Origin: Mycobacterium kiyosense
GTDB lineage: Bacteria > Actinomycetota > Actinomycetes > Mycobacteriales > Mycobacteriaceae
Assembly: GCA_021654635.1 (NCBI GenBank)
Contig: AP025179.1
Coordinates: 3,906,001-3,970,000, forward strand
Length of the DNA: 64,000 bases
Direction: 5' to 3'
This document shows positions 6,941 through 64,000 of this stretch, one piece after another. The translations under genes were made by a program, and so were the position numbers. Under the pieces are notes generated by a model. It was not told the DNA's origin and did no database searches. It worked only from the letters and a program-made list of their open reading frames with translations. Numbering within the stretch: position 1 is the first letter of the stretch; every line of letters starts with the position of its first letter.

Positions 6941-7621
6941 ATGAGCGACAGCAACGACACCTCGGGCTTGCACGCGGTCGACAACGCGCTGACTGAGCGG
7001 CAGCGCACCATCCTGGAAGTAATCCGCTCCTCGGTGACCACCCGCGGGTATCCGCCGAGCATCCGCGAGATCGGTGACGCGGTGGGCCTGACGTCGACGT
7101 CGTCAGTAGCACATCAGCTGCGCACCCTGGAGCGCAAAGGTTACCTACGCCGCGACCCGAACCGACCGCGCGCGGTTGACGTGCGCGGCGCCGATGACGC
7201 AGTGACACCGCCGGTTACCGACGTTGCCGGTTCCGACGCATTACCAGAACCCACCTTCGTCCCCGTTCTCGGACGGATCGCCGCAGGCGGTCCTATCCTC
7301 GCCGAAGAGGCCGTCGAGGACGTCTTCCCGCTGCCGCGCGAGCTGGTCGGGGAAGGGACGCTGTTCCTGCTCAAGGTTGTCGGTGAATCGATGGTCGAAG
7401 CCGCGATCTGCGACGGCGACTGGGTGGTCGTGCGTCAGCAGAACGTCGCCGACAACGGTGACATCGTGGCCGCCATGATCGACGGCGAAGCGACCGTGAA
7501 GACGTTCAAGCGGGCCGGCGGTCAGGTGTGGCTGATGCCGCACAACCCCGCGTTCGATCCCATTCCCGGTAACGACGCGATCGTGCTCGGCAAAGTCGTC
7601 ACCGTTATCCGCAAGGTCTAA
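6941..7621 (+). CDS. lexA: LexA SOS repressor
   Basis: LexA represses DNA-damage genes and self-cleaves when RecA filaments form. The 226-residue product has an N-terminal winged helix ([15 protein letters not shown] through [22 protein letters not shown], recognition helix) and a C-terminal S24 peptidase domain. The cleavage site is the Ala-Gly in GRIAAGGP, the catalytic serine is in [10 protein letters not shown], and the lysine is in [12 protein letters not shown] 6941 is the first start after the SOS box at 6893-6908; longer in-frame readings would run through the operator. Divergent from chiZ. Confidence 0.97.
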
Positions 7622-7641
7622 CCCGGCGCCGGCGCGAGCGC

Positions 7642-10092
7642 TTAATCAGCTCGCACGAAGCCATTGGCTCGGGCAGCGTCCTCGGTGGCGAACCAGATTT
7701 CGGCCAAGGTGTCGTGGTACAGCACGCTGCTGGGCGTGTAGTACAGGCCGAACCGGGCGCTGGCCTTGATCGGATAGCCGTCCGGCGCGCGATACGGGTC
7801 ATCGTCAAGCGGCAGATGGATGGTGGGACGCACTGCGGCGCTGCCCGCGGGCACTGCCACCGGCGCCTCGGCCCGCGGCGCAGCCGCATACGGCGTATCG
7901 GCCTCCGCGGTGTACCCGGCTGGCTCCGCAGCTGCATGCCGGCCCGTCCGAACCTCGGGGACGGGGGCGGCCTCCGGCGGAGACGCGAAGTCCGGCGACT
8001 CCTCGTCGGCGGGTTCGGTCTCGTCGGTTTCGGCATATGTGGATTCGGTGTAGGCGGACTCCGCAGCTGCGTTTTCGGCGAAAGCGTGTTCGGCGAAAGC
8101 GGATTCGGCAGCAGCCGATTCAGTATCGGCGGGTTCGGCGTCGGCGTAGAAGTCGTTCAGGTACTCATCGTCCGGGAAGCTCTCCGGCACATCGCTTTCC
8201 AGCGCATCCACTTCCGGCACGCCGATGCCGGGCAAGTGCGTCTGCGGCACCATGACGTCGGTTTCGAAAACTTCCGGCGTGACGGGCTCGGCGGCCGCCG
8301 GTTCCTCCACGATCAACTCGCCGGAGGCACTGCGCGTCACGATCGGAATCGGAGTGGTGCCCACCGCGTCGGGATCCTCGTCGTCGCCGAACTCCGCGAG
8401 CTCCCCCGACTCGTAACCCTCGTCGCCCACAGCCGCATATTCGGCGAATTCGTCGTCATACTCGTCGTCGAGGCGCGGCTCAGCGTCGGCAACGTCGCGA
8501 TCGATGTCGCCGCCGACGTCCCGGCCGGGCTCCGCGCCGCCGACCAGCCCGCCCCGGGACCAGCCGACCCGCCCGGCCGGACCGGAGTCGGCATGCTCCT
8601 CGAACTGCTCGTCGACGGGCGGGAATCGCTCGGAACCGTAGTCGATGTCGTCGTGCCCCCAGGGCACGTCGGCGCGGGGCTCGTAGCCGGCGCCCACATC
8701 GAGTTCCGGTTCTCGTTCGTACTCGGGTACAACCTGGCCGGCGGCGCGGCGACGGCGCATGCCCACCAACACCAATACGAACATCAGCAGGAGCAGCAGC
8801 ACCGGTACGGCCGCGACCAGCCACCACCAGTGGAAGGTGAACTTCTTAGCCGGCGGCGGGGACGCGGAGTTACTCGGCTGGTTCTGCCCCGCGACCTGCA
8901 GGCCGGACAGCAACGGCGCCAAGTTCGACGGATCGGTGCTGAAGGCGTTCTTGGCGCGGTTCCACGAGATCTTGCCGCCGGTGAACTTCTGCGACACCAC
9001 GTCGCCGTCCATGGTCTGGTCCCCAACGGGGGCGCCGAGTTTCCCGGTGGGGCCCTTGAGCTTGTCCCACGCGGCCTTCATGGCACCGCGCACCACGAAC
9101 GCGCCGTGATCGGGCGTCCAGAAGATCACCGGCTTGTCGGCGGCGGAGAATGTCGCGATCCGGCTGGCGGGCGTGATGCCGCCGTCGGCCTCATTGGCGG
9201 TGGGAAAACCCAGGTCGCTGCTGACCGGTCCCCCGACCGCCTCGTACTTCTGCAGAATCGGCCCTTCGACCGCATTGGCTCCGGTGGCCGGGCTGAAGAA
9301 AATCTTGCCGCCGTTGAAGTCCTGGACGATCCCGTCGCCGCCGATCGGATATTGACCGCCCTTCTTGGCGCCCAATGGGCCGTTCGCTCCGCCGGCGGCG
9401 CGCCAGGACATGTTGATGGCTGCCGTGGGGTCGATCGCTACCTGCAGGCCCTTGAGCTGCTCGGCCAGGGTCGCGGGATTGGTGGTGAACTCCTTGGTCT
9501 TGCGGTTCCAGGACACCTCGCCACCGGTGAACTTCTGGGAGGTCACCTCGCCGTCGTAGGTTTCGTCACCGATCGGGGCGCCCAGCACGCCGCCCGAACT
9601 GCCCAACTTGTCCCACGCCGCGTTGAGCGCGCCGCGAACCACGAACGCGCCGTGGTCGGGGGTCCAGAAGATCACCGGGTTGTCGCTGGCGGCGAAGGTG
9701 CTGACCCGGCTGTCGGGTCCGGCCAGGCCGGGAACCTCGTTGATGGTCGGGAAACCCAGATCGCTGCCTGCCGGACCGCCCAGCGCCTCGTACTTGGCCA
9801 GGATCGGTCCGAACATGTATTTGGCGCCGGTGGCCGGCGTGTAGAACATCTTGCCGCCGTCGAATTCCAGTGCGAATCCGTCCCCGACGGGATATACGTC
9901 GCCTTTGCGGGCTCCCAGCGTCGACGTGTCGCCGCCGGCTTTCTCCCAAGCGGCCATCATGGCCGCCTCGGCATCGCCGATCGGGGACGCCGAGACGGTC
10001 GGCGCCATCAGCGTGACGGCCAGCGCAGTAGCCGCCAAGCCGAGTAACGCCCGCCCGAACAGCCTGCTCAATTGACCTCTCTGCCCGTTCAC
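7642..10092 (-). CDS. Large LGFP-repeat membrane protein with C-terminal sunset-like domain (Rv2721c-like)
   Basis: About 816 residues. A signal peptide or anchor (residues 12-36) precedes an extracytoplasmic region of LGFP-type repeats (LGARKGD, LGFPTINE, LGAPIGDE and similar, each about 50 residues, residues 40-400), thought to contact the cell wall. A lysine- and proline-rich linker and one strong membrane helix (about 425-450, HWWWLVAAVPVLLLLLMF) follow, then an acidic, Glu/Ala-rich, repetitive cytoplasmic tail (ESAFAEHAFAENAAAESAY). The last 45 residues (FGLYYTPSSVLYHDTLAEIW, ending ARANGFVRAD) resemble the sunset domain. The start is GTG 10092; TTG 10095 or a TTG at about 10071 are alternatives. 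Function unknown. Confidence 0.85.
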   Translation of the reverse strand: MNGQRGQLSRLFGRALLGLAATALAVTLMAPTVSASPIGDAEAAMMAAWEKAGGDTSTLGARKGDVYPVGDGFALEFDGGKMFYTPATGAKYMFGPILAKYEALGGPAGSDLGFPTINEVPGLAGPDSRVSTFAASDNPVIFWTPDHGAFVVRGALNAAWDKLGSSGGVLGAPIGDETYDGEVTSQKFTGGEVSWNRKTKEFTTNPATLAEQLKGLQVAIDPTAAINMSWRAAGGANGPLGAKKGGQYPIGGDGIVQDFNGGKIFFSPATGANAVEGPILQKYEAVGGPVSSDLGFPTANEADGGITPASRIATFSAADKPVIFWTPDHGAFVVRGAMKAAWDKLKGPTGKLGAPVGDQTMDGDVVSQKFTGGKISWNRAKNAFSTDPSNLAPLLSGLQVAGQNQPSNSASPPPAKKFTFHWWWLVAAVPVLLLLLMFVLVLVGMRRRRAAGQVVPEYEREPELDVGAGYEPRADVPWGHDDIDYGSERFPPVDEQFEEHADSGPAGRVGWSRGGLVGGAEPGRDVGGDIDRDVADAEPRLDDEYDDEFAEYAAVGDEGYESGELAEFGDDEDPDAVGTTPIPIVTRSASGELIVEEPAAAEPVTPEVFETDVMVPQTHLPGIGVPEVDALESDVPESFPDDEYLNDFYADAEPADTESAAAESAFAEHAFAENAAAESAYTESTYAETDETEPADEESPDFASPPEAAPVPEVRTGRHAAAEPAGYTAEADTPYAAAPRAEAPVAVPAGSAAVRPTIHLPLDDDPYRAPDGYPIKASARFGLYYTPSSVLYHDTLAEIWFATEDAARANGFVRAD

Positions 10093-10364
10093 CAAGCCTC
10101 CCAGCCGATGCCCTGCCCACCTGGCGAGCCGGCGGATTCACCGCCGTGGGCCGTTTCCCCGCAACGGTCCGCATCGTCGCCGGGCTCGCATTACTTTGCT
10201 CTTGCGAACGAGAAATGCGAAGTCAAATTGTAGATATTACGGAAACGGATACCGAGCCGATGTCGAAATGATGCCGTGCCGCGCTCGTGTCGCGAACACG
10301 CGGCGTGCGGAACTCCCGGGCGAGCTGGGGTGGCGAGGGGACTTTGCCGATGCCTGGGCGGAGG

Positions 10365-11525
10365 TCAGACGCCTAGGCCGCGGCCGATGATCTCTTTCAT
10401 GATCTCGGTGGTGCCGCCGTAGATCGTCTGCACCCGAGCATCGAGATACGCCCGGGCGACCGGGTATTCGCGCATGTAGCCGTACCCGCCGTGCAGCTGT
10501 AGGCCCCGGTCGATCAGCTGGACCTGCTTCTCGGTCGAGTACCACTTAGCCATCGCGGCCTGCTCGGCCGTCAGCTTGCCTTCCAGGTGCAGCGCCAGGA
10601 ACTGGTCGACCATGATGCGCACCACGGTCGCCTCGGTGGCCAACTCGGCCAGCAGGAACCGGCTGTTCTGGAAACTGCCGATCGGCTTGCCGAACGCCTT
10701 GCGTTCCTTGGTGTACTGCAGCGTCTGTTCGAGCACGGTTTCCATGGCGGTGGCCGCCATCACCGCGATGTTGATCCGCTCCTGGGGCAGGTTCTGCATC
10801 AGGTAGATGAAGCCGAGGCCCTCCTCGCCGAGCAGGTTCTCGACGGGCACGTGCACATCGGTGAACGACAGCTCCGCGGTGTCCTGGGCGTCCAAACCGA
10901 TCTTGTCCAGGTGGCGGCCCCGCTCGAAACCCTCCATGCCGCGCTCGACCACCAGCAGGCTGAAGCCCTGCGCACCCTTCTCGGGGTCGGTCTGGGCGAC
11001 CACGATGACCAGGTCGGAGTTGATGCCGTTGGTGATGAACGTCTTCGAACCGTTCAGGACGTAGTGGTCGCCCTGCTTGACCGCCCTGGTCTTGATGCCC
11101 TGCAGGTCACTGCCGGTACCCGGCTCGGTCATCGCGATCGCGGTGATCAGTTCGCCGGTGCAGAACTTGGGCAGCCAGCGCTGCTTCTGCTCTTCGTTGG
11201 TCAACTTCAGCAGGTAGGGCGCCACGACGTCGTTGTGCAGACCGAACCCGATGCCGCTGTAGCGTCCGGCGGTGGTCTCCTCGGTGACGATGGTGTTGTA
11301 GCGAAAATCCGGATTGCCGCCGCCGCCGTACTCCTCCGGGACGGCCATCCCGAGGAAGCCCTGTTTGCCGGCCTCCAGCCATACGCCGCGGTCGACGATC
11401 TTGGCTTTCTCCCATTCCTCGTGATGAGGCGCGACATGGCGGTCCAGAAAGGCCCGGTAGGACTCGCGGAACAAGTCGTGCTCGGGTTCGAAAAGCGTGC
11501 GCTGGTATTTGACGGCACCGCTCAT
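10365..11525 (-). CDS. fadE20: Acyl-CoA dehydrogenase FadE20
   Basis: Flavin-dependent acyl-CoA dehydrogenase of beta-oxidation, 386 residues, the M. tuberculosis length. Family signatures are visible: AIAMTEPGTGSDLQGIKTRA in the middle domain and QLHGGYGYMREYPVARAYLD near the end, with the C-terminal YGGTTEIMKEIIGR. The likely catalytic glutamate lies in the C-terminal half as in long-chain and isovaleryl types. The start at MSGAVKYQR is preceded by a possible repressor palindrome 51-68 bases upstream. In M. tuberculosis a TerC gene and Rv2722 lie between Rv2721c and fadE20; only 269 bases remain here, so they are absent from this position. Confidence 0.93.
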   Translation of the reverse strand: MSGAVKYQRTLFEPEHDLFRESYRAFLDRHVAPHHEEWEKAKIVDRGVWLEAGKQGFLGMAVPEEYGGGGNPDFRYNTIVTEETTAGRYSGIGFGLHNDVVAPYLLKLTNEEQKQRWLPKFCTGELITAIAMTEPGTGSDLQGIKTRAVKQGDHYVLNGSKTFITNGINSDLVIVVAQTDPEKGAQGFSLLVVERGMEGFERGRHLDKIGLDAQDTAELSFTDVHVPVENLLGEEGLGFIYLMQNLPQERINIAVMAATAMETVLEQTLQYTKERKAFGKPIGSFQNSRFLLAELATEATVVRIMVDQFLALHLEGKLTAEQAAMAKWYSTEKQVQLIDRGLQLHGGYGYMREYPVARAYLDARVQTIYGGTTEIMKEIIGRGLGV

Positions 11526-53450: not shown

Positions 53451-53855
53451 TCAGGTCTGCAAATCGGCTTCGAGGAAGTTGTCGACGTCGACGGTGCGCG
53501 TGATCCAGCGCCACCACCCCGGCAGCTGCGGCTCGGCGGTGGCGGCGTCGATGACGCGCGGCTGCACGACCTCGACGGTGCGCCCCTTGGTCACTACGGT
53601 CGCCGATCCGGCGGCGAGCACGTTGCGCAGCCAGTCGACACCGGTGCCGTAGGGCAGCGGCACCAGGATCTTGTCCGGCGTCGTGATGACGACAACCGGA
53701 GTCTGGTATCGCCGTCCCGAGTTGCGGCCGGTATGCCGGATCACCGACGCATACCAATAGCGGCGGCCCGCCAAGGCCATGCTGAGCGGGTTGGTCACCC
53801 GCTTGTTGAGTTGTCGGACCGCGTCCCGGACGTGTGGATTTCGGTAGGTGGGCAT
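53451..53855 (-). CDS. Deazaflavin (F420)-dependent nitroreductase family protein (DUF385)
   Basis: 134 residues from MPTYRNPHVRDAVRQLNKRV. The split beta-barrel fold is marked by VIRHTGRNSGRRYQTPVVVI and LVPLPYGTGVDWLRNVLAAG, the F420-binding segments of the Ddn/FDOR-A-like group. It may reduce quinones or unsaturated compounds with F420H2. Upstream in-frame codons belong to the intergenic region. Divergent from the thioesterase gene. Confidence 0.85.
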   Translation of the reverse strand: MPTYRNPHVRDAVRQLNKRVTNPLSMALAGRRYWYASVIRHTGRNSGRRYQTPVVVITTPDKILVPLPYGTGVDWLRNVLAAGSATVVTKGRTVEVVQPRVIDAATAEPQLPGWWRWITRTVDVDNFLEADLQT

Positions 53856-53928
53856 GTGTTCAGCCTGCTGGCATCGGGGACCGATGGCCAGGGACTTACG
53901 TCCTGAATCGCCGGTTAGTCTGTCCTCG

Positions 53929-54777
53929 ATGACGACCGCCGACTCCACGCCCGCACTCGACGCGTTCTTCACGGTCGACGGCGAGTTCTACCTGCCCGGT
54001 GAGATGACGCGGGGTCCCTGGGGCGCGACGATGGGCGGTCAGATCGTCGGCGGTCTGTTGGGTTGGGGAATCGAACAATCCGGTATCGAACAATCCGGTA
54101 TCGACGCGGATTTTCAGCCCGCCCGGCTCACCGTGGACCTACTGCGGCCGGCGCTGCTCGAGCCGGTGCAGATTCATACCTCGGTGCAGCGCGCAGGTCG
54201 TCGTCTCAGGCTCGTCGACGGCACGCTGGTGCAGAACGGGAAGACCGTGGCGCGGGCCAGCGCGCTGTTTCTGCGCCGCGGCGACCATCCCGAGGGCGAA
54301 GTCTGGTCGGCAGCAGTGCAGATGCCGCCCCTTCCGGCCGGCTCGGCGGGTTTTCCGGACGACATGCCGTTCCACATCTGGGGGTACGGCGCCACTTCGG
54401 CAGGCAGCCCGGGTATCGCGGCCGGCGAGTGGGAGCAGACACACTCCCAGAAATTCGCCTGGACAAGGCTTTTCCGTCCGTTGGTGGAGGGCTTTCCGTT
54501 GACCCCGTTCACCCGGCTGGCGTTCGTCGGGGATGTGACAAGCTCGCTAACCCATTGGGGCACAGGGGGTTTGCGGTACATCAATGCCGACTACACGGTC
54601 ACCGCAAGCCGACTGCCGGAGGGCGAGTACGTCGGGTTGGCCGCCCAGAGTCATTACGCAGCCGCCGGAGTGGCCACCGGCAGCGCGATCCTGTTCGACC
54701 AGCACGGGCCGATCGGCACCAGTTCGGCGCTGGCCCTGGCGCAGCCCGCCGAGGCATTCAAACCGATGTTCACTTAG
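53929..54777 (+). CDS. Acyl-CoA thioesterase-like double-hotdog protein
   Basis: 282 residues from MTTADSTPALDAFFTVDGEF. Two hotdog units: FYLPGEMTRGPWGATMGGQI with the first helix, and a second half (YINADYTVTASRLPEGEYVG, GVATGSAILFDQHGPIGTSS) as in TesB-like acyl-CoA thioesterases. A perfect 15-base tandem copy (atcgaacaatccggt at 54070-54084 and 54085-54099) duplicates I-E-Q-S-G in the helix. Acyl substrate unknown. Confidence 0.85.
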   Translation: MTTADSTPALDAFFTVDGEFYLPGEMTRGPWGATMGGQIVGGLLGWGIEQSGIEQSGIDADFQPARLTVDLLRPALLEPVQIHTSVQRAGRRLRLVDGTLVQNGKTVARASALFLRRGDHPEGEVWSAAVQMPPLPAGSAGFPDDMPFHIWGYGATSAGSPGIAAGEWEQTHSQKFAWTRLFRPLVEGFPLTPFTRLAFVGDVTSSLTHWGTGGLRYINADYTVTASRLPEGEYVGLAAQSHYAAAGVATGSAILFDQHGPIGTSSALALAQPAEAFKPMFT

Positions 54778-55022
54778 CCGAAACGCCACCGGGCTGCCAG
54801 ACCTCGGCCCGGGTGCGGCGTTTGGGTTATGCTGACGCTCCATCAGCCGCGACCGGATCCGCACGTCTCGGGTGGCGGGCGGACGGTCACTACGACGGGT
54901 GGACATTCCCTTGGAGGGGAACCGGCCATGCGCATTCACTTAACACCGCTACTCCTTTTCCGGACCCCTTTCCCGTACTGCGCAGTCCGGCCGGCAGCGC
55001 CCACCCCGGTGTGCCCTGCGCC

Positions 55023-58000
55023 GTGACGACCCCGGTGCTCGACCTCGACGGCCGGCTGATCAACCGGCAGCAGGAGTTCGCCGAACTTCGGGCCGCGGTG
55101 GAAACGGCGGGACGTGTCGGCGGTGAGTGCCTGCTGCTCAGCGGGACACCGGGAGTCGGCAAGTCGACGCTCATGCAGGCCTTCGGCGTCGAGGTGTCCG
55201 AACGTGGCTGCGTGTTCGCGTACGGCAGGTGCCGGGACGGCGCCGCCGCCCCCTACGCGGCGCTGTCGGACGCGCTCGGCTCGCTGGTGCGCAGCATGCA
55301 GGTCACCGGGCCGCCCGAATGCGAGCACTGGCGCGCCGATCTGGTCAGCGAGATGTCGGGGTTTGCGGGCATTCTCGGCGAACTCGTGCCCGACCTGGCG
55401 GCGGTGCTGGGCGGCCCCTCGGACGAAGTCGACCTCGATGCGGCGGACTCGCGCCGCCAATTGCACCGCGCCGCCATTCGGCTGTTGTCCGCCACGGCGT
55501 CCTATCGGCCGGTGGTCCTGGCGATCGACGACCTGCAGTGGGCCGATCGGGACACACTGCTGCTGCTGGCCGAACTCTTGACGGTGTCGCTGCGCAACGT
55601 CCTGGTCGTCGGTGCGTACCGCTCGGGTGCGTTCGATGCGACCGCGGCGGGCATCAGAGCGCAGAGCCTGAAGACGATCGAGCTCGAACCGCTGGCCGCC
55701 GATGATGTCGAGGAGCTGCTCGCCGAGGTGTGCGGTCGCAGCGTGGAGATGCGCGACGTGGCAGCGGAGTTCCACCATCGGACCGGCGGCAACCCGCTGC
55801 AGCTGCGTCAGCTGTTCTATCGGGCGCAACGCGAAGGCGCGCTCAACCCGGCCGGCCCGGGCGGCCGCCCGAGTTGGGATCTGCGCGTACTCAGCTCGAT
55901 CGAGGTCTCCGCCACCGCCGCGGAGTTCCTGGGGCGCTACCTCGATCAGCTCCGCCCGACCGACCGGGAGGTGTTGAGTTCGTTGTCGTGTATCGGCACC
56001 GAGTTCGACCTCGACGACGCGACGGCAGCGGCCGCGCGGTCTCCCGACGTCGTGGCCCACGCGCTGTGGGTGTGCCTCGAGCTTCGTTTGGTCGAGGCCC
56101 TCGACGGCGGTGGCCAGCGGATTACCAACGCGATCAGCCGCGACGCCCGCTACCGGTTCAGCCACGACCGGGTAGCCGAGGCAGCGCGCGCCGGGATGTC
56201 CGCCGATCAGATGCGCGCCGTGCACCTGCGTATCGGGCGGCGACTGGTCACGCTCGGGGACGATCGGGTGTTCGAGGCCGCGCGCCACGTCGGGATCGGC
56301 GGGCTGGGGTTGGCCGACGAGGTCGAACGCACCGGTTTCGTCGAGGTGGTGCGGCGGGCGGCGCGCAAGGCCCGGGCGCAGGCTTCGTTCCCGTTGGCCC
56401 TCGGGTATTGCCGTAATGCTCTGGATCTGCTTGGCGGGCAACGTTGGGCCGCCCACTTCGCGCTGACCCGGGAGCTGCAGCTCGACGCCGCCGAGGCCGC
56501 ACTGCTGGTTGGTGACATACCGGTGCTCAATGCGCTGCTCGACGAGGCCGAGCAGATGCTGTACGAACCGCCGGACCGCGCGCGCCTGGCCTATCTACGG
56601 CTCAAGGGCCGGGTCGCGGAGAACCGCCTGCAGGAGGCGCTCGAAATCGGGCTGCAAGCCCTCGACGAACTCGGCGAAAAGATCCCCAGCGAGGCGGGCA
56701 AGCCGCGGATGGGCAACGCGATCGTCCGGATGCGACTGACGATGAGCCGCTGGAGCAGCGAGCGACTGCTGGACCTGCCGCACTGTGCGGACCGGCGGGT
56801 CATCGAAATCCAGCCGATTCTCGCCGAACTGTGCAGGTTGTCGGTGCTCGTCCGGCCCAACCTGTTGCCCTTGCTGGTACGCAAGCAACTCGATCTGATG
56901 CTGGCCCACGGCCACACACCCTCCTCGCCGGTGGTGATCGGCGGTTACGGGATTGTGCTCGTACTGCTCGGTGACCATGCCGGCAGCCAGCGCTTCGGCG
57001 AGGTCGGCATGATGCTTGCCGAGCGACCGGAATTCCGGGACGCGCGGCCGCAGACGTTGTTCATGCACCTGGACTTCATCCAGCACTGGCGCCACCCGCT
57101 CCGCGACGGCCTGAGCGAGCTTCGCGACGCCATCGAGGAGGCGCTCGACCAGGGCGACCAGGAGAGCGCTGCAAGCCTGGTCGCCGTCCTGCTCTCGCAG
57201 TCGTTCTGCGTCGGTCGTCCGCTCGCGGAGATCGACGCAATCGCCAGCTCCCTGATCCCGCACATCCGTTCCCAGCCGGTGCACAGCTCGCTATGCCAGG
57301 CCATGCACCAGTTCTGCCTCAACCTGATGGGCCGCAGCGCCGATCCCGTCCTCCTCGCCGGCGAAAGCGGATACGACGAGCGAGAGGTGCTGCCAGCCGC
57401 CCGACGGGAGGGCGACGAGGTGTCGCTGAGTGTCGCCGCAGCCATGAAGCAGGGCCTGCACTTCTGGTGCGGGGACCACGCCGGCGCGGTCGCCGCCACC
57501 CCGGAGGCAATCGAGCACCTCGGGGGTCTGGCCGGCACCGCGGTGTCAGAACTTGTCCACCTCATCGCCGCGCTCAGCATGATCCGGTGCGCGCCTCGGG
57601 ATCGCTCGACGGCGCGTTTCGTCCGCCAGACGCTGGCGTCGCACCGCAAGTGGGCGACGGAGGCACCGGAAAACTACGCAGCGCCCTATGCCCTGATCCG
57701 GGGCGCATGGGCGCGAGCGCGGGGGCAACACGCCAAGGCCGAGCGCCACCTGCACAGGGCGATCGAGCTCGCCGAGAAAAATCAGCTGCCGATGATCAGT
57801 GCGCGAGCCCAGGAGGAGGCGGCCGCCCTCTATGCCGACACCAGCCGGACGACGCTGCGCGACCATATGCTGCGATCGGCCTATCAGCGCTGGCTGAACC
57901 TGGGTTTCAAGGTGCGTACCGACTGGCTGGCGCGGGAACATCCCTGGCTGCTCAGACGCGATCTCAAGACGGATGCGGCCGGGATCGACCCGGTCGGCGC

Positions 58001-59369
58001 CCATCAGCTGCTGCACGCGCTGTCGGGCGCCCGGACCCCGGACGGCTTGGCCAACATCATTCTGGGCTCGGTGGCGGACACGACCGGTGCGCGCCGCGTC
58101 CTGTTCCTCACCGGTGCAGCGGAGAATCTGTCGGTCCGCGCCATCCACGAACACGGCGACATCTCGATCGTGGACGGCCCCTGGACCGAAGTGCCCTACG
58201 ACGCCGACATCGTGCGCCGCGCGATGGGCACCGGCTCCCCCATGATCGTCGCCGCCGAGCCCGCCCAACCGGGTGGCCGGTCACCGGGACGCGGTCAACA
58301 GCATCCGGGCCCGTCCGTGCTCGTCGTTCCGATCACGTTGCAGGACAAAATAATCGGCGTCATTTACGCCGAGCAGGACGAATCCGGCGGAAGCTTCACC
58401 GCCGACCACGAACAGGCGGTCGCCTTCTTGAGCGCCCAGGCCGCCGCGCCCCTGTGGAACTTCCAGCTCGAGGCACGCCTGCGGGCCGCCGACGAGCACC
58501 GACAGTCCCTGATCGACGTGCAATCCCGGTTTGTGCCCAATGAACTGCTGCGCATCCTCGACATCGACGACCTTCGCCGCGTCCGCAGCGGCTACCGGGT
58601 GGAACGCGAGATGACCGTGCTCATCAGCGATATCCGGGGTTATACGACCATGATCGAGGACATGGACGTCGCCGAGGCGGGCAACCTGGCGATGGGCTTC
58701 CTGCGGGCTGTCGAGCTGCCGATCATCAGCTACAACGGCATGATTCAAGACGTGCGCGGGGACGAGATCGTCGCCGTGTTCGAGTCCGAGTCCGACGGCA
58801 TCCGCGCGGGATTGGCCATGCTGCGCTCGCTGCGCGAGCACAACCAGGAACGCAGAGCACTCGGCTCCGAGGAGCTGCGGGCGGGCATCGGCATCAACAC
58901 AGGCGCGGTGGCGGTCGGGCTCGTCGGTGGGGTGAACCGGATGGTGCTCACCATCATCGGCGACGCGGTGAACCTCGCCGCACGTATCGAGAGCACCAAC
59001 AAGCGTTACGGCTCGGCGTTGCTCATCTCCGACCGCACCTATCAGCGCCTCTCGTCGTCCGAGCAATTCGACATCCGGCGCATGGAGCGCGTGATGGTGG
59101 TCAACCGACGTCGACCGGTGACGATTTACGAAGTGTACGAAGAGGATTCGGCTCCCCTGCGGGCCGCAAAGCGCGCGGCGCAACCCGCGTTCGACGAGGC
59201 CTTCGCATTGTTCGACGCGGGCGACGTCGAGGGGGCGCGCGCCGCTTTCGAACGATGCCGCGAGTTGTTGCCCGAGGATCCCGTAGCACCGCTGCATCTG
59301 GCGCACTGCGACGCGGTGGCACGCGGTGAGCTGACCCCTGGTCAAGAGATAGCCCTGATGACCAAGTAG
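55023..59369 (+). CDS. AAA/STAND ATPase - TPR-like - GAF - class III nucleotide cyclase
   Basis: About 1,448 residues, starting at GTG 55023 (GTG 55011 also possible; no clear ribosome site). Residues 1-300: AAA_16-type ATPase with P-loop GTPGVGKST (41-49) and Walker B VVLAIDDLQWAD (~160). ~320-990: helical repeats. ~1000-1150: GAF domain (DPVGAHQLLHALSGARTPDG, VPITLQDKIIGVIYAEQDES). ~1195-1380: class III cyclase with first metal Asp in LISDIRGYTTM, second metal Asp in DVRGDEIVAVF, and IIGDAVNLAARIES carrying the transition-state Asn and Arg. The position three before GD, normally Lys in adenylyl cyclases, is Asp. The rest is a TPR-like tail. Signal and nucleotide are unknown. Confidence 0.88.
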   Translation: MTTPVLDLDGRLINRQQEFAELRAAVETAGRVGGECLLLSGTPGVGKSTLMQAFGVEVSERGCVFAYGRCRDGAAAPYAALSDALGSLVRSMQVTGPPECEHWRADLVSEMSGFAGILGELVPDLAAVLGGPSDEVDLDAADSRRQLHRAAIRLLSATASYRPVVLAIDDLQWADRDTLLLLAELLTVSLRNVLVVGAYRSGAFDATAAGIRAQSLKTIELEPLAADDVEELLAEVCGRSVEMRDVAAEFHHRTGGNPLQLRQLFYRAQREGALNPAGPGGRPSWDLRVLSSIEVSATAAEFLGRYLDQLRPTDREVLSSLSCIGTEFDLDDATAAAARSPDVVAHALWVCLELRLVEALDGGGQRITNAISRDARYRFSHDRVAEAARAGMSADQMRAVHLRIGRRLVTLGDDRVFEAARHVGIGGLGLADEVERTGFVEVVRRAARKARAQASFPLALGYCRNALDLLGGQRWAAHFALTRELQLDAAEAALLVGDIPVLNALLDEAEQMLYEPPDRARLAYLRLKGRVAENRLQEALEIGLQALDELGEKIPSEAGKPRMGNAIVRMRLTMSRWSSERLLDLPHCADRRVIEIQPILAELCRLSVLVRPNLLPLLVRKQLDLMLAHGHTPSSPVVIGGYGIVLVLLGDHAGSQRFGEVGMMLAERPEFRDARPQTLFMHLDFIQHWRHPLRDGLSELRDAIEEALDQGDQESAASLVAVLLSQSFCVGRPLAEIDAIASSLIPHIRSQPVHSSLCQAMHQFCLNLMGRSADPVLLAGESGYDEREVLPAARREGDEVSLSVAAAMKQGLHFWCGDHAGAVAATPEAIEHLGGLAGTAVSELVHLIAALSMIRCAPRDRSTARFVRQTLASHRKWATEAPENYAAPYALIRGAWARARGQHAKAERHLHRAIELAEKNQLPMISARAQEEAAALYADTSRTTLRDHMLRSAYQRWLNLGFKVRTDWLAREHPWLLRRDLKTDAAGIDPVGAHQLLHALSGARTPDGLANIILGSVADTTGARRVLFLTGAAENLSVRAIHEHGDISIVDGPWTEVPYDADIVRRAMGTGSPMIVAAEPAQPGGRSPGRGQQHPGPSVLVVPITLQDKIIGVIYAEQDESGGSFTADHEQAVAFLSAQAAAPLWNFQLEARLRAADEHRQSLIDVQSRFVPNELLRILDIDDLRRVRSGYRVEREMTVLISDIRGYTTMIEDMDVAEAGNLAMGFLRAVELPIISYNGMIQDVRGDEIVAVFESESDGIRAGLAMLRSLREHNQERRALGSEELRAGIGINTGAVAVGLVGGVNRMVLTIIGDAVNLAARIESTNKRYGSALLISDRTYQRLSSSEQFDIRRMERVMVVNRRRPVTIYEVYEEDSAPLRAAKRAAQPAFDEAFALFDAGDVEGARAAFERCRELLPEDPVAPLHLAHCDAVARGELTPGQEIALMTK

Positions 59370-59470: not shown

Positions 59471-60247
59471 ATGTATCTGAGTGCGGAGCGGTTGGCCCTG
59501 GCCAACCAAACAGTCCGAGAGACTTTCGAGCAGACCAGCGTCGCCTGGCAGGCCATCCCGCACTGGGACACCGGCGACCCCAGCCAGACGGCGGTGTCCC
59601 AAGACAACTTGACCCCGCCGATCAACCTGTTGTCGCTCACCCCAGCGCACGTCGTTTCATTCACGCTGACGCTGGCCGAGGTTGTCGCCCCGACTGCCGA
59701 CACATTGCTGGCGAACGTGATCGCCAGCACCGTCCAGCTTGCCGCAGATTTCGACACCGCCGTATTCCCGGCGCTGCTGACGGGGACGACACCCAAGCAG
59801 GTGGTCGGCGGAATTACCGCATCGGATCTCCTGATTGCGCTGATCGCGGCCCGCGCGCAGGTAGAGAACAACGGATACCGTGCCCCGTCGTGTCTGGTCA
59901 CCGACACGTTCGGGGTGATGGCGCTCGCCGCGAGCACGATCGCGAACGGTTACGCCGGAACGGACGTGCTGCTACCTCCGGCGAACGTCAACTCCCTGCA
60001 GCGGGTTGACACGCTCGCGACCGACCCCGATGTCCGCGGGTGGCTGCTGGGACGGCGCCAGCGAATTGCGCCCGCAGGCGCAGCGGACGCGTCGGCGGGT
60101 GAAGAAGCGGTGGACATCGCCGTCAGCATTCCTCCCAGCCTGGAAGTCGTCGGCGAAGTGGCCGCTAACACAATCGAATTGAGAGTCCGCATCGCATACG
60201 CCACCAGGGTGAAGGATGAAGGCGGCCTCGTTGCCTTCACCGTCTGA
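59471..60247 (+). CDS. Capsid-like (possible HK97-fold/encapsulin-like) protein, first gene of a terpenoid operon
   Basis: 258 residues from ATG 59471, with aaggag at 59457-59462. No signal peptide, no membrane helix. The middle (DLLIALIAARAQVENNGYRA then LVTDTFGVMALAASTIAN) and end (VDIAVSIPPSLEVVGEVAAN, TIELRVRIAYATRVKDEGGL) resemble the domain-A sheet and C-terminal strand of HK97-type shell proteins and encapsulins, and GRRQRIAPAGAADASAGEEA resembles a flexible loop. I could not name a family with certainty; the capsid idea is from pattern and from the operon, in which encapsulins often precede terpene enzymes. The stop overlaps the next ATG (TGATG). Confidence 0.55.
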   Translation: MYLSAERLALANQTVRETFEQTSVAWQAIPHWDTGDPSQTAVSQDNLTPPINLLSLTPAHVVSFTLTLAEVVAPTADTLLANVIASTVQLAADFDTAVFPALLTGTTPKQVVGGITASDLLIALIAARAQVENNGYRAPSCLVTDTFGVMALAASTIANGYAGTDVLLPPANVNSLQRVDTLATDPDVRGWLLGRRQRIAPAGAADASAGEEAVDIAVSIPPSLEVVGEVAANTIELRVRIAYATRVKDEGGLVAFTV

Positions 60248-61431
60248 TGACAGCCACGCTGCCTGACGCGCGGCCGGTACCGACGGCGCTCAGCCCGCTC
60301 GAGGATTATCTCGCTGTATGCAAGGACGCTTGCTTCGGCGAGATCAAGCGGCTCTACAGTCCCGGTGACGCTCACTCGAGCGGTCTGCACGAAATGATCC
60401 TCGACTACCCGATGCGTGGCGGAAAAGCGCTGCGGCCGGCACTGAGCATTGCCACCTGCCTCGGGCTCGGTGGCCACCTCGAGGCGATACTGCCGACCGC
60501 CGCGACGCTGGAGCTCTATCACAACGCGTTCCTCATCCACGATGACATCGAGGACGAATCCTGGTGGCGGCGCGGCAAACCCACGCTGCACGTCGACCAC
60601 GGCGTGCCGATTGCGGTCAACGTCGGCGACGCCATGCTGTCGATGTCGCTGCAACCGCTGCTGGACAACGTCGAGCGCATCGGCCTCGGGCCCGCGCTAC
60701 GCATCCTGCGTGCCGTCGCGAAAATGACCCGGCTGACCGTCGACGGCCAGGCCGTGGAACTCGAGTGGGTCCGGTCCAACGCCTGGCGGCTCGACGACGC
60801 CGACTACCTGAACATGGTGGAACTGAAAACCAGCTGGTACTCCTTCATTACGCCGCTACAGGCCGGCGCGATCGCCGCCGGCGCGGGAGCCGAGCGGTTG
60901 GCGCCGCTGGAGTCCCTCGGCCGACATCTCGGCGCGGCCTTCCAGATCACCGACGACCTGCTGAACCTGCGGGCGGACCCGCAGGAATACGGCAAGGAGA
61001 TCGGCGGCGACCTGTGGGAGGGCAAGCGGACGCTGATGTTGTTGCACGCCTTGCGCACTGCCGAGCCCAACGACCGGGATCAGGCCGTGCGGATTCTGGC
61101 CAAGCGCCGTCCGAGCCCGGACGACGAGTTGGGGCTGAGCGAGCTGCTGGACCGGCTCGCCGCTCGCGGGCAACTGTCCCAGTCGGGCCGGGCCGAGATC
61201 GAGGCCCGGCTGCAGGGGCAGCATCCCTCAGAGCCCAAGACCCTCAACGACATTCGGTGGCTTTACGAATTGATGCACCGCGTCGGTTCACTCAAGCACG
61301 CCCGCGACATCGCCGCCCGGCAGGCACGGGAGGCGGCCAAAGTTCTTGCCACCCTGAATTGGTTGCCGCGCAGCCGCCACCGCGACGTGCTCGCCGACCT
61401 GGTCGACTACGTGCACGGGCGGACCCGATGA
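60247..61431 (+). CDS. Trans-polyprenyl diphosphate synthase
   Basis: 394 residues. RGGKALRP (57-64), first Asp-rich motif DDIED (99-103), GKEIGGDLWEGKRT (249-262) and second Asp motif DDLLN (236-240). It elongates allylic diphosphates with IPP in the cytosol, giving a C15-C20 or longer chain; the residues before the first motif are YHNAFLIH, with Ala at -5 and Phe at -4. The second motif has Asn for the last Asp, which is unusual. An N-terminal Pro/Ala extension of about 15 residues precedes the fold. The stop overlaps the next start by four bases. Confidence 0.88.
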   Translation: MTATLPDARPVPTALSPLEDYLAVCKDACFGEIKRLYSPGDAHSSGLHEMILDYPMRGGKALRPALSIATCLGLGGHLEAILPTAATLELYHNAFLIHDDIEDESWWRRGKPTLHVDHGVPIAVNVGDAMLSMSLQPLLDNVERIGLGPALRILRAVAKMTRLTVDGQAVELEWVRSNAWRLDDADYLNMVELKTSWYSFITPLQAGAIAAGAGAERLAPLESLGRHLGAAFQITDDLLNLRADPQEYGKEIGGDLWEGKRTLMLLHALRTAEPNDRDQAVRILAKRRPSPDDELGLSELLDRLAARGQLSQSGRAEIEARLQGQHPSEPKTLNDIRWLYELMHRVGSLKHARDIAARQAREAAKVLATLNWLPRSRHRDVLADLVDYVHGRTR

Positions 61432-61886
61432 ACCCCGAAGGCTTGATCGGCATGCTCGCGGAACTCGAGCGGATCCGCGAACTCACCCTCGACCTGATCG
61501 AACAACAGACCCCGCAGTTGCGTCCGGCCCCTCCGGATGAGGCCGACGGGACGGAGCGAACCGTCTTCGACGTCCTCGTCGGGCTGCGTCGTGCCGTCCT
61601 GGGCAATCCCGCGGCCGCCCGACGCATGCACGATCTCCTTGTTGCCGAAGGCCGCCGCTATGCACGCACCCCCCGTGGGACGCGGCTGCGCGACGCGCTG
61701 GTCGCCTCCGAAGCAGTGGAGAACCTGCGACGCGTCTGGGAGATGGTGAGCCTCAACATTTTGGACGGTCCCACCGCGCCCAGCGGCGTCCCGAACGCCT
61801 GGGCAGACCTGCTGGCCGACGCTTTGATCGGGCGTGGGCTCGACGATTCTGTCCTGGCTCGGCTGCGGCCCGAGGGGTTCGCATGA
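61428..61886 (+). CDS. Uncharacterised helical protein of the terpenoid operon
   Basis: 152 residues: MNPEGLIGMLAELERIRELT opens, then LIEQQTPQLRPAPPDEAD, a mostly helical Arg/Leu/Ala-rich body (LRRAVLGNPAAARRMHDLLV) and WADLLADALIGRGLDDSVLA. No signal, no membrane helix, no known motif. It overlaps both neighbours by four bases, so it is an integral operon member. It could be a cargo-binding, assembly or regulatory subunit; I have no direct evidence. Confidence 0.75.
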   Translation: MNPEGLIGMLAELERIRELTLDLIEQQTPQLRPAPPDEADGTERTVFDVLVGLRRAVLGNPAAARRMHDLLVAEGRRYARTPRGTRLRDALVASEAVENLRRVWEMVSLNILDGPTAPSGVPNAWADLLADALIGRGLDDSVLARLRPEGFA

Positions 61887-62164
61887 CGCTCACCGATCCC
61901 CGCGAAGCGCTCGCCGACCAGAGCGAGTTCATCGGCTACCTGGTTGGCATCGCCGGGCTGGCCCGGGTGGTTCACACCTTGGCCGCCGACGGCGACCGCC
62001 GCCCTGAAAGTCCCTGCGAGGCAGACGACTTCGTGCACGTCCTGCTCGGGGTGGCGAGTATCGGTGCGGGGATCGAGCAGCTCGCCAATCCAGTTGCCGC
62101 ACAGCAGGACATGACAGCCGATGCAACGCTTCCCGTCGCACCGAGCACGCGGTGGCTGCGATGA
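61883..62164 (+). CDS. Small uncharacterised protein of the terpenoid operon
   Basis: 93 residues: TDPREALADQSEFIGYLVGI, then AGLARVVHTLAADGDRRPES and ADDFVHVLLGVASIGAGIEQ. One moderately hydrophobic helix near residues 50-65, no clear signal peptide. No family recognised. Start and stop overlap the neighbours by four bases each. Confidence 0.7.
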   Translation: MTLTDPREALADQSEFIGYLVGIAGLARVVHTLAADGDRRPESPCEADDFVHVLLGVASIGAGIEQLANPVAAQQDMTADATLPVAPSTRWLR

Positions 62165-63185
62165 GTGCCCTGCTCGCGCGCAGCGACTTCCTCCGCGCCC
62201 CGGTGCTGGCCACCGCCCGGCCGGCGGGTTTCAAAGGAGTGGCACCACTTCGTGGTCCACGGTCGGGGGTTGCGGCTGTTGATCAACTTCAGCCTCACCA
62301 ATGAAGCGTTCGGGACAGATGAAGTCCGCCTTACGCCACGCGTCATCGTGATCGCGCGCGACGAGAATTTGGACGGGGGCCATCGAGCGGTTCGACGAGC
62401 GCGCGCTGAACGTCTCGGCCGATCTGGGTGAACTCACCATCGGCGACAGCCGGGTCTCCGTGCTACCCGACGGCTACCGCGTGTCAATCGACCTGCCCGA
62501 CAAGGGGATTCGCGGCGAACTGCACTTCACCTCCGGGTGCAGGCCAGTCGTGGTTCGTAACGAACCGGTGGGAGACGGCCGAATCAGCTGGCTCTTCGTA
62601 CCTCGGCTGCGCGCCGACGGATGGCTACGTATCGCCGGCCGGGAGTACCGGATGGAAAACGACCTTGCCTATCACGACCACAACTGGGGCCGCTTCTGGT
62701 GGGGCGACGACTTCGGCTGGACGTGGGGCACCGTTTTGCCGACCGAACCCGGCAACCCGTGGTCGATGGTAGTAGTGCAGATGACCGACCGCAGTCGGCT
62801 GCGCTGCCTGTCGCGTGCGCTCTACGTGTGGCATCACGACGAGCCTGCGGCGACGTTTCGGCACGCGGCGGTGCAGACGCGCTCGGACGGTCTGCTCAGC
62901 CGCGCGGCCGACTGCACCTTGCCGCCCCAAATGCGGTTGCTGCTCGACGGCGAGGTGCCAAGCGTCCCGGAGCGCCTCGACGTCACCGCAACCCGGGGCG
63001 CCGATACGGTGCACATCGAGTTCCGTTCGCGCTGTTATGCCCGCCTGGCGCAGCCGAGCGAAGTATGTCTCGATCGATCGACCGTGCTCTGCGAAACAGA
63101 CGGTAGCGCCCGAGCCACCGGAACGATCAACGGCGAAAACATCGACTTCGCCGGTACCGGTGTATTCGAGTTCCTACATGGCTGA
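62161..63185 (+). CDS. CrtC/AttH-like lipocalin-fold protein (carotenoid hydratase-like), two frameshifts
   Basis: About 340 residues after correction. YHDHNWGRFWWGDDFGWTWG is the conserved core of the CrtC/AttH/Svf1-like calycin superfamily (hydroxyneurosporene synthase-like), with FVVHGRGLRLLINFSLT, LPDGYRVSIDLPDKGIRGEL and the C-terminal strands. Members bind or hydrate isoprenoid double bonds. Two one-base insertions are needed: AAA at 62233-62235 and TTT at 62368-62370; then FKEWHHFVVHG and RDENWTGAIERFD read through. Start ATG 62161, four bases before the previous stop; end at 63185. Confidence 0.78.
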
Positions 63186-63582
63186 ACGGGTTTCGTCGCT
63201 ATTGCGGCGTTCGGTCGAGCACCTGGAGAACGAGGTGCCCGACAGCTACCGCTTGCTGGTCAGCGAGCTCGGCCCGCTGGTGGTACAAATCGACGTCGAC
63301 GGTGAGGTGTTCACACTGCGCGGCGGTGATCGGCTTCGAGTGTCCGAAGGTGCGGCGCAGCCGGGCGATGCCCGGATCGCCACCTCGCGAGTCGCGATCC
63401 TCGATCTGCTCGATGCGCGGGTCGGGCTGGGTGAGGCCGTGGAAGCGGGGGCGGTGTGCGTTCACGGTTCCCTCGATGACGTCCAGCGTGCTCACGACTC
63501 GCTGCGGGCATACGTCCATGCCGCGATCCGGGCGCCCTCGCTGCCCGTACTGCTGACCGAGCTTCGCGCGGGGGCGCCATGA
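63178..63582 (+). CDS. SCP2-like sterol/lipid carrier domain protein
   Basis: 134 residues from ATG 63178, starting eight bases inside the previous gene. LLVSELGPLVVQIDVDGEVF, then a glycine-rich turn and RIATSRVAILDLLDARVGLG with a C-terminal helix; the alternating hydrophobic strands and tunnel-forming helices match the SCP2 fold. It may shuttle an isoprenoid or lipid intermediate. Its stop overlaps the next start by four bases. Confidence 0.68.
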   Translation: MAERVSSLLRRSVEHLENEVPDSYRLLVSELGPLVVQIDVDGEVFTLRGGDRLRVSEGAAQPGDARIATSRVAILDLLDARVGLGEAVEAGAVCVHGSLDDVQRAHDSLRAYVHAAIRAPSLPVLLTELRAGAP

Positions 63583-64000
63583 GCGAGTGCATAACGACAC
63601 CGGCGTCACGCAAACCACGTCCCACGGTGGCGGTGCTGGGGGCGGGCATCGCCGGACTCACCGCGGCGCATGAGCTCGCCGAGCGCGGCTTCGTCGTCAC
63701 GGTGTACGAGGCACGGCGCGATGAACGCAACGGGTTGGGGACCGAGCCGCCCGGAACTTACCCTCCGGTCAAGCTCGGCGGGCTGGCCGCCTCGCAGTAT
63801 TCGACGGTGGGCACGCACAACGGAAGCCAAGCTGAGCTGCGCCCCTTCCCGGGCCGTCGGGGTCAGCCCCGTGATCCGGGGCGAGCGGCTGCCGGTGAAC
63901 ATGGCTTCCGCTTCTTCCCGGCTTACTACCTGCACATCTGGGACCTGTTCCAACGCACTCCGGTCTATCAGCTCACCCAGACGGCCGACGGGACGGCCCG
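63579..64000 (+). CDS. FAD-dependent amine-oxidase/phytoene-desaturase-like enzyme, C-terminus beyond window
   Basis: Only the first 140 residues are visible. The dinucleotide site VAVLGAGIAGLTAAHELAERG with the ribose-binding Glu in VTVYEA is clear. EHGFRFFPAYYLHIWDLFQR is a motif of the actinobacterial FAD-dependent amine-oxidase-like proteins related to phytoene and squalene desaturases/dehydroxylases. It probably oxidises an isoprenoid made by the upstream synthase. Overlaps the SCP2-like stop by four bases. Confidence 0.82.
   Translation, partial: MSECITTPASRKPRPTVAVLGAGIAGLTAAHELAERGFVVTVYEARRDERNGLGTEPPGTYPPVKLGGLAASQYSTVGTHNGSQAELRPFPGRRGQPRDPGRAAAGEHGFRFFPAYYLHIWDLFQRTPVYQLTQTADGTA

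What the first reader, a model, noticed from the sequence alone, without database searches (positions are those of the whole stretch)
59471..64000. Seven overlapping genes: capsid-like shell protein plus an isoprenoid pathway
The seven genes overlap by 1-8 bases without a gap, so they act as one unit. Order: capsid-like protein, polyprenyl synthase, two orphans, CrtC/AttH-like protein, SCP2-like carrier, FAD desaturase-like enzyme. Known encapsulin classes (2B and 3) enclose terpene enzymes, and a cyclase gene precedes this operon. If the first protein is an HK97-fold shell, this is a new encapsulated terpenoid system; otherwise it is still an undescribed lipid pathway.
Basis: partly seen in the sequence, partly recalled or inferred. 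Interest (0 to 1): 0.82.

Follow-up and report, generated by a model that had tools for sequence, protein, structure and literature searches.

The report
Lipid-making encapsulin in mycobacteria
In dozens of mycobacteria, and in a more distant form in two marine Ruegeria strains, a gene for a protein predicted to fold like the shell of an encapsulin sits next to genes for isoprenoid-type enzymes and a nucleotide cyclase, so these bacteria likely build tiny protein compartments in which a still unknown isoprenoid lipid would be made.

The parts
54063..59369 (+). Nucleotide cyclase with AAA_16, GAF, guanylate-cyclase and TPR domains; conserved neighbour directly upstream of the shell gene (the real start codon is uncertain; the part used for comparison begins near codon 310 of this frame)
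   Evidence: Pfam AAA_16 3.2e-28, GAF 2.1e-9, Guanylate_cyc 2.7e-10; directly upstream on the same strand in 45 of 46 relatives' loci, downstream on the other strand in the remaining one
59471..60247 (+). Encapsulin-like shell protein, 258 aa, predicted HK97 fold
60247..61431 (+). Polyprenyl diphosphate synthase-like enzyme (PT), 394 aa
   Evidence: Pfam polyprenyl_synt 2.8e-59; PDB profile best 1wmw geranylgeranyl diphosphate synthetase 3.4e-61
61428..61886 (+). orf3, conserved 152-aa protein of unknown fold
   Evidence: No convincing Pfam, NCBIfam or PDB match; 56-84% identical in 22 relatives aligned
61883..62164 (+). orf4, conserved 93-aa protein of unknown function
   Evidence: ORF; matched in all 44 loci that reach it; no Pfam match, one sub-cut-off NCBIfam match (0.0037)
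62161..63185 (+).
   Evidence: Pieces matched apart to one continuous frame in relatives; an intact relative hits the Rv3169 family at 1.4e-4, below its cut-off; DUF2804 in 11 of 22 relatives, best 0.0063, and tocopherol cyclase in 3, best 0.028
63178..63582 (+). SCP2-like small protein, 134 aa, possible lipid carrier
   Evidence: Pfam SCP2 in 10 of 23 members, best 5.1e-5; the related Alkyl_sulf_C in 8, best 0.0015; window protein itself 0.038, below cut-off
63579..64000 (+). FAD-dependent oxidoreductase, first 140 of 1033 codons (gene continues outside the window): conserved core of about 735 aa plus a 298-aa Pro-rich tail with two amphipathic motifs
   Evidence: Pfam NAD_binding_8, Amino_oxidase, DAO; tail motif in 43 of 44 relatives plus own

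Best explanation
The cluster encodes a divergent shell protein predicted to fold like a Family 1 encapsulin, and it likely packages an isoprenoid-modifying pathway (polyprenyl synthase, FAD oxidoreductase, CrtC-like and SCP2-like proteins) whose expression or activity would be set by the adjacent nucleotide cyclase. Shown by sequence or computation: gene order and conservation, the enzyme families of the PT and of the FAD protein's N-terminal part, the predicted shell fold, the tail and its repeated motif, and the recurrence of cyclase + encapsulin + FAD oxidoreductase + PT in Ruegeria. Inferred: the shell assembles into a particle of encapsulin size; the proline-rich tail (fused to the FAD enzyme in about half the loci, a separate frame in the rest) binds the shell interior through its amphipathic motifs and so loads the FAD enzyme, and perhaps the others, as cargo; the PT makes a linear prenyl diphosphate that the FAD enzyme desaturates or isomerises, the CrtC-like protein hydrates or cyclises, and the SCP2-like protein carries; the shell keeps a hydrophobic or reactive intermediate together with its enzymes; and the cyclase reports a stimulus.
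Against: No experiment; assembly, cargo and product are untested. The window protein itself hits no Pfam family; the profile comparison with 21 Family 1 shells of this genome and relatives is negative (probability 1.6%, E 0.031); and the Ruegeria-type profile, run over whole genomes, did not find the window's shell in its own genome at E <= 0.001 (only 6 of 14 first-look candidates scored, and this genome's ordinary Family 1 shell was missed too). The canonical Family 1 targeting peptide is absent: 2 stray matches in 312 operon proteins of relatives (1 of 46 shells, 1 of 44 SCP2-like), none in 43 tails and none in five window proteins plus the own tail, while the same pattern rings in the frame beside this genome's own Family 1 shell. 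The Ruegeria FAD protein ends in a different stretch, where I saw no copy of the tail motif (by eye). The Ruegeria cyclase has its cyclase motif before the AAA part, the reverse of ours, and matches ours only in one AAA-containing stretch (26%, E 1.9e-9), so the shared cyclase may be two separate recruitments. Ruegeria has no CrtC-, SCP2- or orf3-like partner by profile search of the five cluster proteins. No terpene cyclase or phytoene synthase domain was seen in the unit, so no product can be named. In the window one gene is broken, so the system may be partly inactive in this genome.
Confidence: 0.67

Rival explanations
1. The shell forms a particle, but the tail binds lipid droplets or membranes rather than the shell interior: a phasin- or perilipin-like amphipathic anchor (resemblance recalled, not tested) that brings the FAD enzyme to its hydrophobic substrate, with the shell acting on something else.
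For: The motif is amphipathic and the partners are lipid-type proteins; no canonical encapsulin targeting peptide is found.
Against: Tail motif and shell occur together in 43 of 44 loci plus own, and the tail is a separate frame in 23 of 43 untruncated loci, which fits an adaptor for the shell at least as well.
Confidence: 0.2
2. The HK97-fold protein is a domesticated phage capsid that does not enclose the enzymes; it is a scaffold or stays as small oligomers, and the operon is a plain lipid pathway.
For: The HK97 fold is shared with phage capsids, and 11 of 113 homologues hit a phage major head family. The shell varies more than the enzymes (43-68% against 72-87% identity for the PT, partial matches of L065 and L072 left out).
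Confidence: 0.12
3. An anti-phage defence island: AAA ATPase plus nucleotide cyclase as sensor and signal, with a capsid-like protein as decoy or trigger.
For: The cyclase domain matches Pycsar cyclase models (best 1.7e-16); the locus is patchy (23 of 198 genomes of the genus).
Against: None of the other 7 proteins scanned matches a PADLOC model convincingly (OloA 0.0085, LmuA 0.0038; a desaturase-named model 4.6e-7 that covers only 31 residues of the FAD-binding fold); no effector of a known type seen; enzymes under strong conservation.
Confidence: 0.04

Closest known systems
Family 1 (classical) encapsulins, e.g. Myxococcus xanthus EncA and the mycobacterial DyP encapsulin
   Same: Predicted fold and length (258 aa against chains of 257-280), N-terminal helix, best structural matches; profile link through Ruegeria-type shells.
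   Different: Sequence below family cut-offs; no canonical targeting peptide; partners are isoprenoid-type enzymes and a nucleotide cyclase, not the peroxidase, ferritin-like and few other cargos given for Family 1 in the section of PMC8346489 that I read. This genome also has an ordinary Family 1 shell beside a frame ending in a GSLSIGSL peptide.
Family 2B encapsulins with polyprenyl transferase or terpene cyclase cargo
   Same: A shell next to a polyprenyl synthase-type enzyme (PMC8346489 section on Family 2, part 1); the PT scores 180.9 bits on the Family 2 PT cargo model (cut-off 450). Both have a link to cyclic nucleotides.
Ruegeria plasmid cluster: cyclase, Family 1 encapsulin, DUF3237, FAD oxidoreductase, PT
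   Same: Same four core gene kinds side by side; homologous FAD enzyme and PT.
   Different: Gene order differs, a DUF3237 protein is present, no CrtC-, SCP2- or orf3-like proteins found by profile in the cluster, different cyclase domain order and a different FAD tail.

Membership tests
Encapsulins in general (HK97-fold cellular shells) | HK97 fold of the shell protein | tested here: met
   By prediction only: pLDDT 95.5, Foldseek and VIA matches to solved encapsulins
Encapsulins in general (HK97-fold cellular shells) | Self-assembly into an icosahedral shell | not testable with these tools
   Needs expression and electron microscopy
Encapsulins in general (HK97-fold cellular shells) | Not part of a phage genome; neighbours are metabolic genes | tested here: met
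   Operon conserved in 44 of 46 loci; no PHROG hit at E <= 0.001 among 9 operon and flanking proteins, shell and cyclase not included; no phage record or IMG/VR contig found with the shell
Encapsulins in general (HK97-fold cellular shells) | Dedicated cargo loading | not testable with these tools
   Only a candidate element, the tail, was found
Family 1 encapsulins | N-terminal helix in place of the phage N-arm | tested here: met
   Model helix 5-22; alignment to Family 1 chains from model residue 1. Judged from secondary structure and aligned ranges, not from coordinates
Family 1 encapsulins | Match to Linocin_M18 or NF041155 above the curated cut-off | tested here: not met
   Window protein: no match; best of 113 homologues 0.013 and 0.0032. 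The Ruegeria shell passes NF041155
Family 1 encapsulins | Cargo with GSLxIGSL-type targeting peptide | tested here: not met
   Pattern scan: 2 stray matches in 312 operon proteins of relatives, none in 43 tails, none in the window proteins scanned; positive control rings
Family 2B encapsulins | cNMP-binding domain in the shell protein | tested here: not met
   258 aa, no Pfam domain; residues 1-258 are spanned by matches to HK97-fold chains
Family 2B PT cargo | PT above the NF041169 cut-off (450 bits) | tested here: not met
   180.9 bits; outside the 22 rows chosen by that model in the tree (long branches, exact place unsure)
Family 3 (natural-product) encapsulins | PF05065 shell | tested here: not met
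   No PF05065 match in the window protein or in 113 homologues at E <= 0.1; one homologue bears the UniRef name 'Phage major caps...'
Family 3 (natural-product) encapsulins | Embedded in a peptide natural-product gene cluster (NRPS, PKS, sulfotransferase and the like) | tested here: not met
   None of the cluster proteins scanned hits such a family; genes beyond the cluster were not scanned for this

The most novel reading that the evidence does not exclude
A new branch of encapsulins: a Family 1-like shell that houses a multi-enzyme isoprenoid pathway, loaded through a disordered, multivalent tail or free-standing scaffold protein instead of a short targeting peptide, and coupled to a dedicated nucleotide cyclase; the same logic arose or spread in mycobacteria, Pseudonocardia and marine alphaproteobacteria.
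Probability: 0.55. Interest if true: 0.88.

Novelty: new variant of a known kind. Interest (0 to 1): 0.8.

Why it matters
If true, it extends Family 1-type compartments from redox and iron chemistry to isoprenoid lipid synthesis. It adds an adaptor-like loading protein that exists both fused and free, a natural experiment on how cargo is recruited, and it joins a compartment to a nucleotide cyclase in two phyla, which makes the published guess of cyclic-nucleotide control of encapsulins (PMC8346489, Family 2 section) testable in a system without a cNMP domain in the shell. It also points to an undescribed isoprenoid product in environmental and opportunistic mycobacteria.

Tried and rejected
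Single-sequence structure prediction was useless (pLDDT 35); only the alignment-based model was used. Direct searches with the shell gave nothing in Pfam or, as a profile, among PDB sequences. Comparison with 21 of the 28 Family 1 matches (alignment A7, mostly same-genus genomes) was negative. The terpene-cyclase reading of the upstream gene is rejected. PT as a member of the Family 2 PT cargo group is not supported (the 22 rows were the best scorers on NF041169, 7 of them above its cut-off, and shells beside them were not looked for; treekit warned that long branches make places unsure; one row of 'ownparalogs', L173, is the window's own PT, so that label was impure; L176 gave no hit and was left out). 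Prophage origin is not supported; the shell was also not found in 72,556 plasmid records. The Ruegeria-type shell profile matched 10 of 396 Actinomycetota genomes; the five strongest, all of one family, were fetched and show no PT, FAD or cyclase homologue within the 18.5-19 kb taken (tblastn, E <= 1e-4), so this shell type is not tied to isoprenoid genes everywhere; the other five were not fetched. A search for other proteins with the tail motif in the own genome found only the FAD gene with confidence (E 2.9e-50; next 0.087). Family 2A shells are not in the 50 listed VIA rows; that absence is not evidence. A solved-structure profile search found nothing for the CrtC-like protein or orf3 and only a weak SCP2-like hit (0.85) for the SCP2-like protein. 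Literature: nine searches of the open PMC library; no listed title or abstract start describes this operon, and the listings were capped. Read: PMC8346489, abstract and sections on distribution, Family 1, Family 2 (part 1 of 2), Family 3 and phylogeny; PMC12407261, five passages found by term; all else only as listings. The supplement of PMC8346489, whose unassigned Family 1 operons could include relatives, was not readable, and subscription journals and bioRxiv (apart from copies in PMC) were not searched, so 'undescribed' is provisional.
Full report
WHAT IS THERE. The window is G000:C1:3906001-3970000 of a 6.35-Mb single-contig genome. From 59471 to 66680 (window numbering; the last part lies outside the window) seven genes follow each other with overlaps of 1, 4, 4, 4, 8 and 4 bases. 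Downstream come a small gene and dapB on the other strand (names by eye). Upstream, 101 bases before the shell gene, ends a long gene with AAA_16, GAF, guanylate-cyclase and TPR domains. The CrtC-like gene does not form one open frame here: its pieces lie in different frames, while in relatives it is one frame of 332-344 codons in 43 of 44 loci, the exception being the decayed M. lepraemurium locus L065.

THE OPERON IS A UNIT. A pattern-based scan of GTDB contigs gave 46 loci, 44 mycobacterial and 2 from Pseudonocardiales. All seven genes are found in the same order in 44 of 46; the other two end inside the run at the end of the DNA held. Junctions, with starts picked by script and L065 dropped: PT/orf3 overlap by 4 bases in 44 of 44; orf3/orf4, CrtC/SCP2 and SCP2/FAD overlap in 43 of 43; shell/PT in 25 of 44; orf4/CrtC in 33 of 43. 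The cyclase lies directly upstream on the same strand in 45 of 46, with a gap of 22-105 bases in 44 of those (L065 gives 533 because its shell frame is broken), and in Pseudonocardia eucalypti it lies downstream on the other strand. Genes further out differ: dapB-side genes in 6-8 loci, and at least four other downstream groups of 5-11 loci. The locus is patchy: 23 of 198 genomes of the genus, 8 of 348 of the order including one of another family, 6 of 396 of the phylum, all of the genus; each count includes the own genome, and the sets are samples. The shell was not found in phage or plasmid records or IMG/VR.

THE PARTNERS. The PT is a trans-isoprenyl diphosphate synthase by profile (Pfam 2.8e-59; best solved relative a geranylgeranyl diphosphate synthetase, 3.4e-61). 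It is no closer to the Family 2 encapsulin PT cargo model (180.9 bits, cut-off 450) than to IdsA (185.9), and in a tree of 42 rows the 22 PTs chosen as best scorers on that model (7 above its cut-off) form one side of a branch (99/98) without it (long branches make its own place unsure). The FAD protein has a conserved core of about 735 residues; only its first 50 or so residues match known models, among them HpnE and carotenoid desaturases. The SCP2-like protein hits SCP2 in 10 of 23 members, best 5.1e-5. The CrtC-like protein, judged in intact relatives, hits the Rv3169 family (1.4e-4 in the one tested, below its cut-off), DUF2804 (11 of 22, best 0.0063) and tocopherol cyclase (3 of 22, best 0.028). 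orf3 and orf4 stay unknown.

THE TAIL. After the core comes a stretch rich in Pro, Ala, Gly and Ser. In 20 of 43 untruncated loci (L065 among them), and in the window's genome, it is fused to the FAD enzyme; in 23 the FAD frame ends at 738-756 codons, and in all 23 a motif-bearing frame follows. The tail carries a motif like LFxYLQAWRQYLE in 43 of 44 relatives plus the own genome (read in any forward frame; the miss, L029, is a contig end), with two or more copies in 27 of those 44 sources; mean hydrophobic moment 0.393 against 0.216 (sd 0.012) in shuffles, single-window median p 0.047 (windows are related, so the joint figure overstates independence). A second short motif, P(K/R)(S/T)L(F/Y/L), is in 24 of 43 tails and the own one. 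The usual Family 1 targeting peptide is absent: 2 stray matches in 312 operon proteins of relatives, none in the 43 tails or the window proteins scanned, while the same pattern rings in the frame next to this genome's ordinary Family 1 shell. I read the tail as a multivalent cargo-loading or scaffold element; that is inference, and disorder itself was judged from composition only.

RECURRENCE IN ANOTHER PHYLUM. Following the PT into plasmid records led to Ruegeria sp. AD91A and THAF33: a nucleotide cyclase, a protein annotated as Family 1 encapsulin shell (105.7 bits, cut-off 100), a DUF3237 protein, an FAD oxidoreductase (in THAF33 seen by tblastn, not in the gene table) and a PT, one after the other. 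The PT is 38% identical to the window's over 350 residues including its C-terminal part; the FAD enzyme is 25% identical over 658 residues, with a profile E of 9.2e-53 in a set of six proteins. The cyclase has its cyclase motif first, then the AAA part, and matches ours only in part (E 1.9e-9); there are no CrtC, SCP2 or orf3 relatives by profile, and the end of its FAD protein differs. So the combination of cyclase, shell, PT and FAD enzyme recurs, with different details. A related FAD enzyme also stands next to a PT-family gene on a Streptomyces plasmid where no shell was annotated or found by tblastn in the 15.6 kb seen, which suggests that the enzyme pair also works without a shell; this is inference from few cases.

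MECHANISM AND LIMITS. The likeliest mechanism is a Family 1-like compartment that holds the FAD enzyme, and perhaps the PT and the small proteins, by way of the tail, keeping a hydrophobic isoprenoid and its enzymes together. The cyclase would tie expression or activity to a signal; its adenine-specifying lysine position (recalled) is Asp in the 37 of 47 sources in which my pattern matched, so its substrate and activity are open. Nothing here shows assembly, loading, catalysis or product.

COMPARISON AND NOVELTY. PMC8346489 (sections read) gives PT and terpene cyclase cargo for Family 2B, and peroxidase, ferritin-like and a few other cargos for Family 1, plus 90 unassigned Family 1 systems detailed in a supplement I could not open. 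Nine searches of the open PMC library listed no description of this operon. I file it as a new variant of a known kind: works like an encapsulin system, shell nearest to Family 1 by predicted structure, but not a member by the curated sequence cut-offs or the targeting peptide.

Noticed in passing
G000:C1:5671174-5671926 (L081): The same genome has an ordinary Family 1 encapsulin (Linocin_M18, E 4.7e-97) next to a frame that ends in a GSLSIGSL-type targeting peptide, as expected of a DyP peroxidase (identity not scanned).
   Followed up: partly
G000:C1:2203429-2204301 (L082): A Family 2 encapsulin-like gene (401.5 bits on the 2B model over two stretches, without the stretch between them) lies before a frame that looks, by eye, like a cysteine desulfurase; so this genome has three kinds of HK97-type shell genes.
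   Followed up: partly
L065 (Mycobacterium lepraemurium): The operon is present but decayed: matches to the shell, CrtC-like and FAD genes are broken into pieces.
   Followed up: no
window 54063-59369: The conserved cyclase has Asp where class III adenylate cyclases have the adenine-specifying Lys (motif recalled); the 37 sources in which the pattern was found agree.
   Followed up: partly
window 53848-54777: An acyl-CoA thioesterase-like gene (4HBT_3 domains) lies upstream of and overlaps the open frame of the cyclase; I did not test whether relatives share it.
   Followed up: no
L181 (Streptomyces sp. NBC_01174 plasmid), 6977-9740: An FAD oxidoreductase related to the operon's enzyme stands tail to tail with a polyprenyl synthase-family gene, with no shell gene annotated or found nearby.
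   Followed up: partly
L178 (Kitasatospora sp. NBC_00039 plasmid), 9878-10966: A polyprenyl synthase 46% identical to the window's over 264 residues, with no shell or related FAD gene found in the 20.8 kb seen.
   Followed up: partly
L177 1-2011: In Ruegeria a choline/ethanolamine kinase-family gene and a second FAD oxidoreductase lie just before the cyclase.
   Followed up: no
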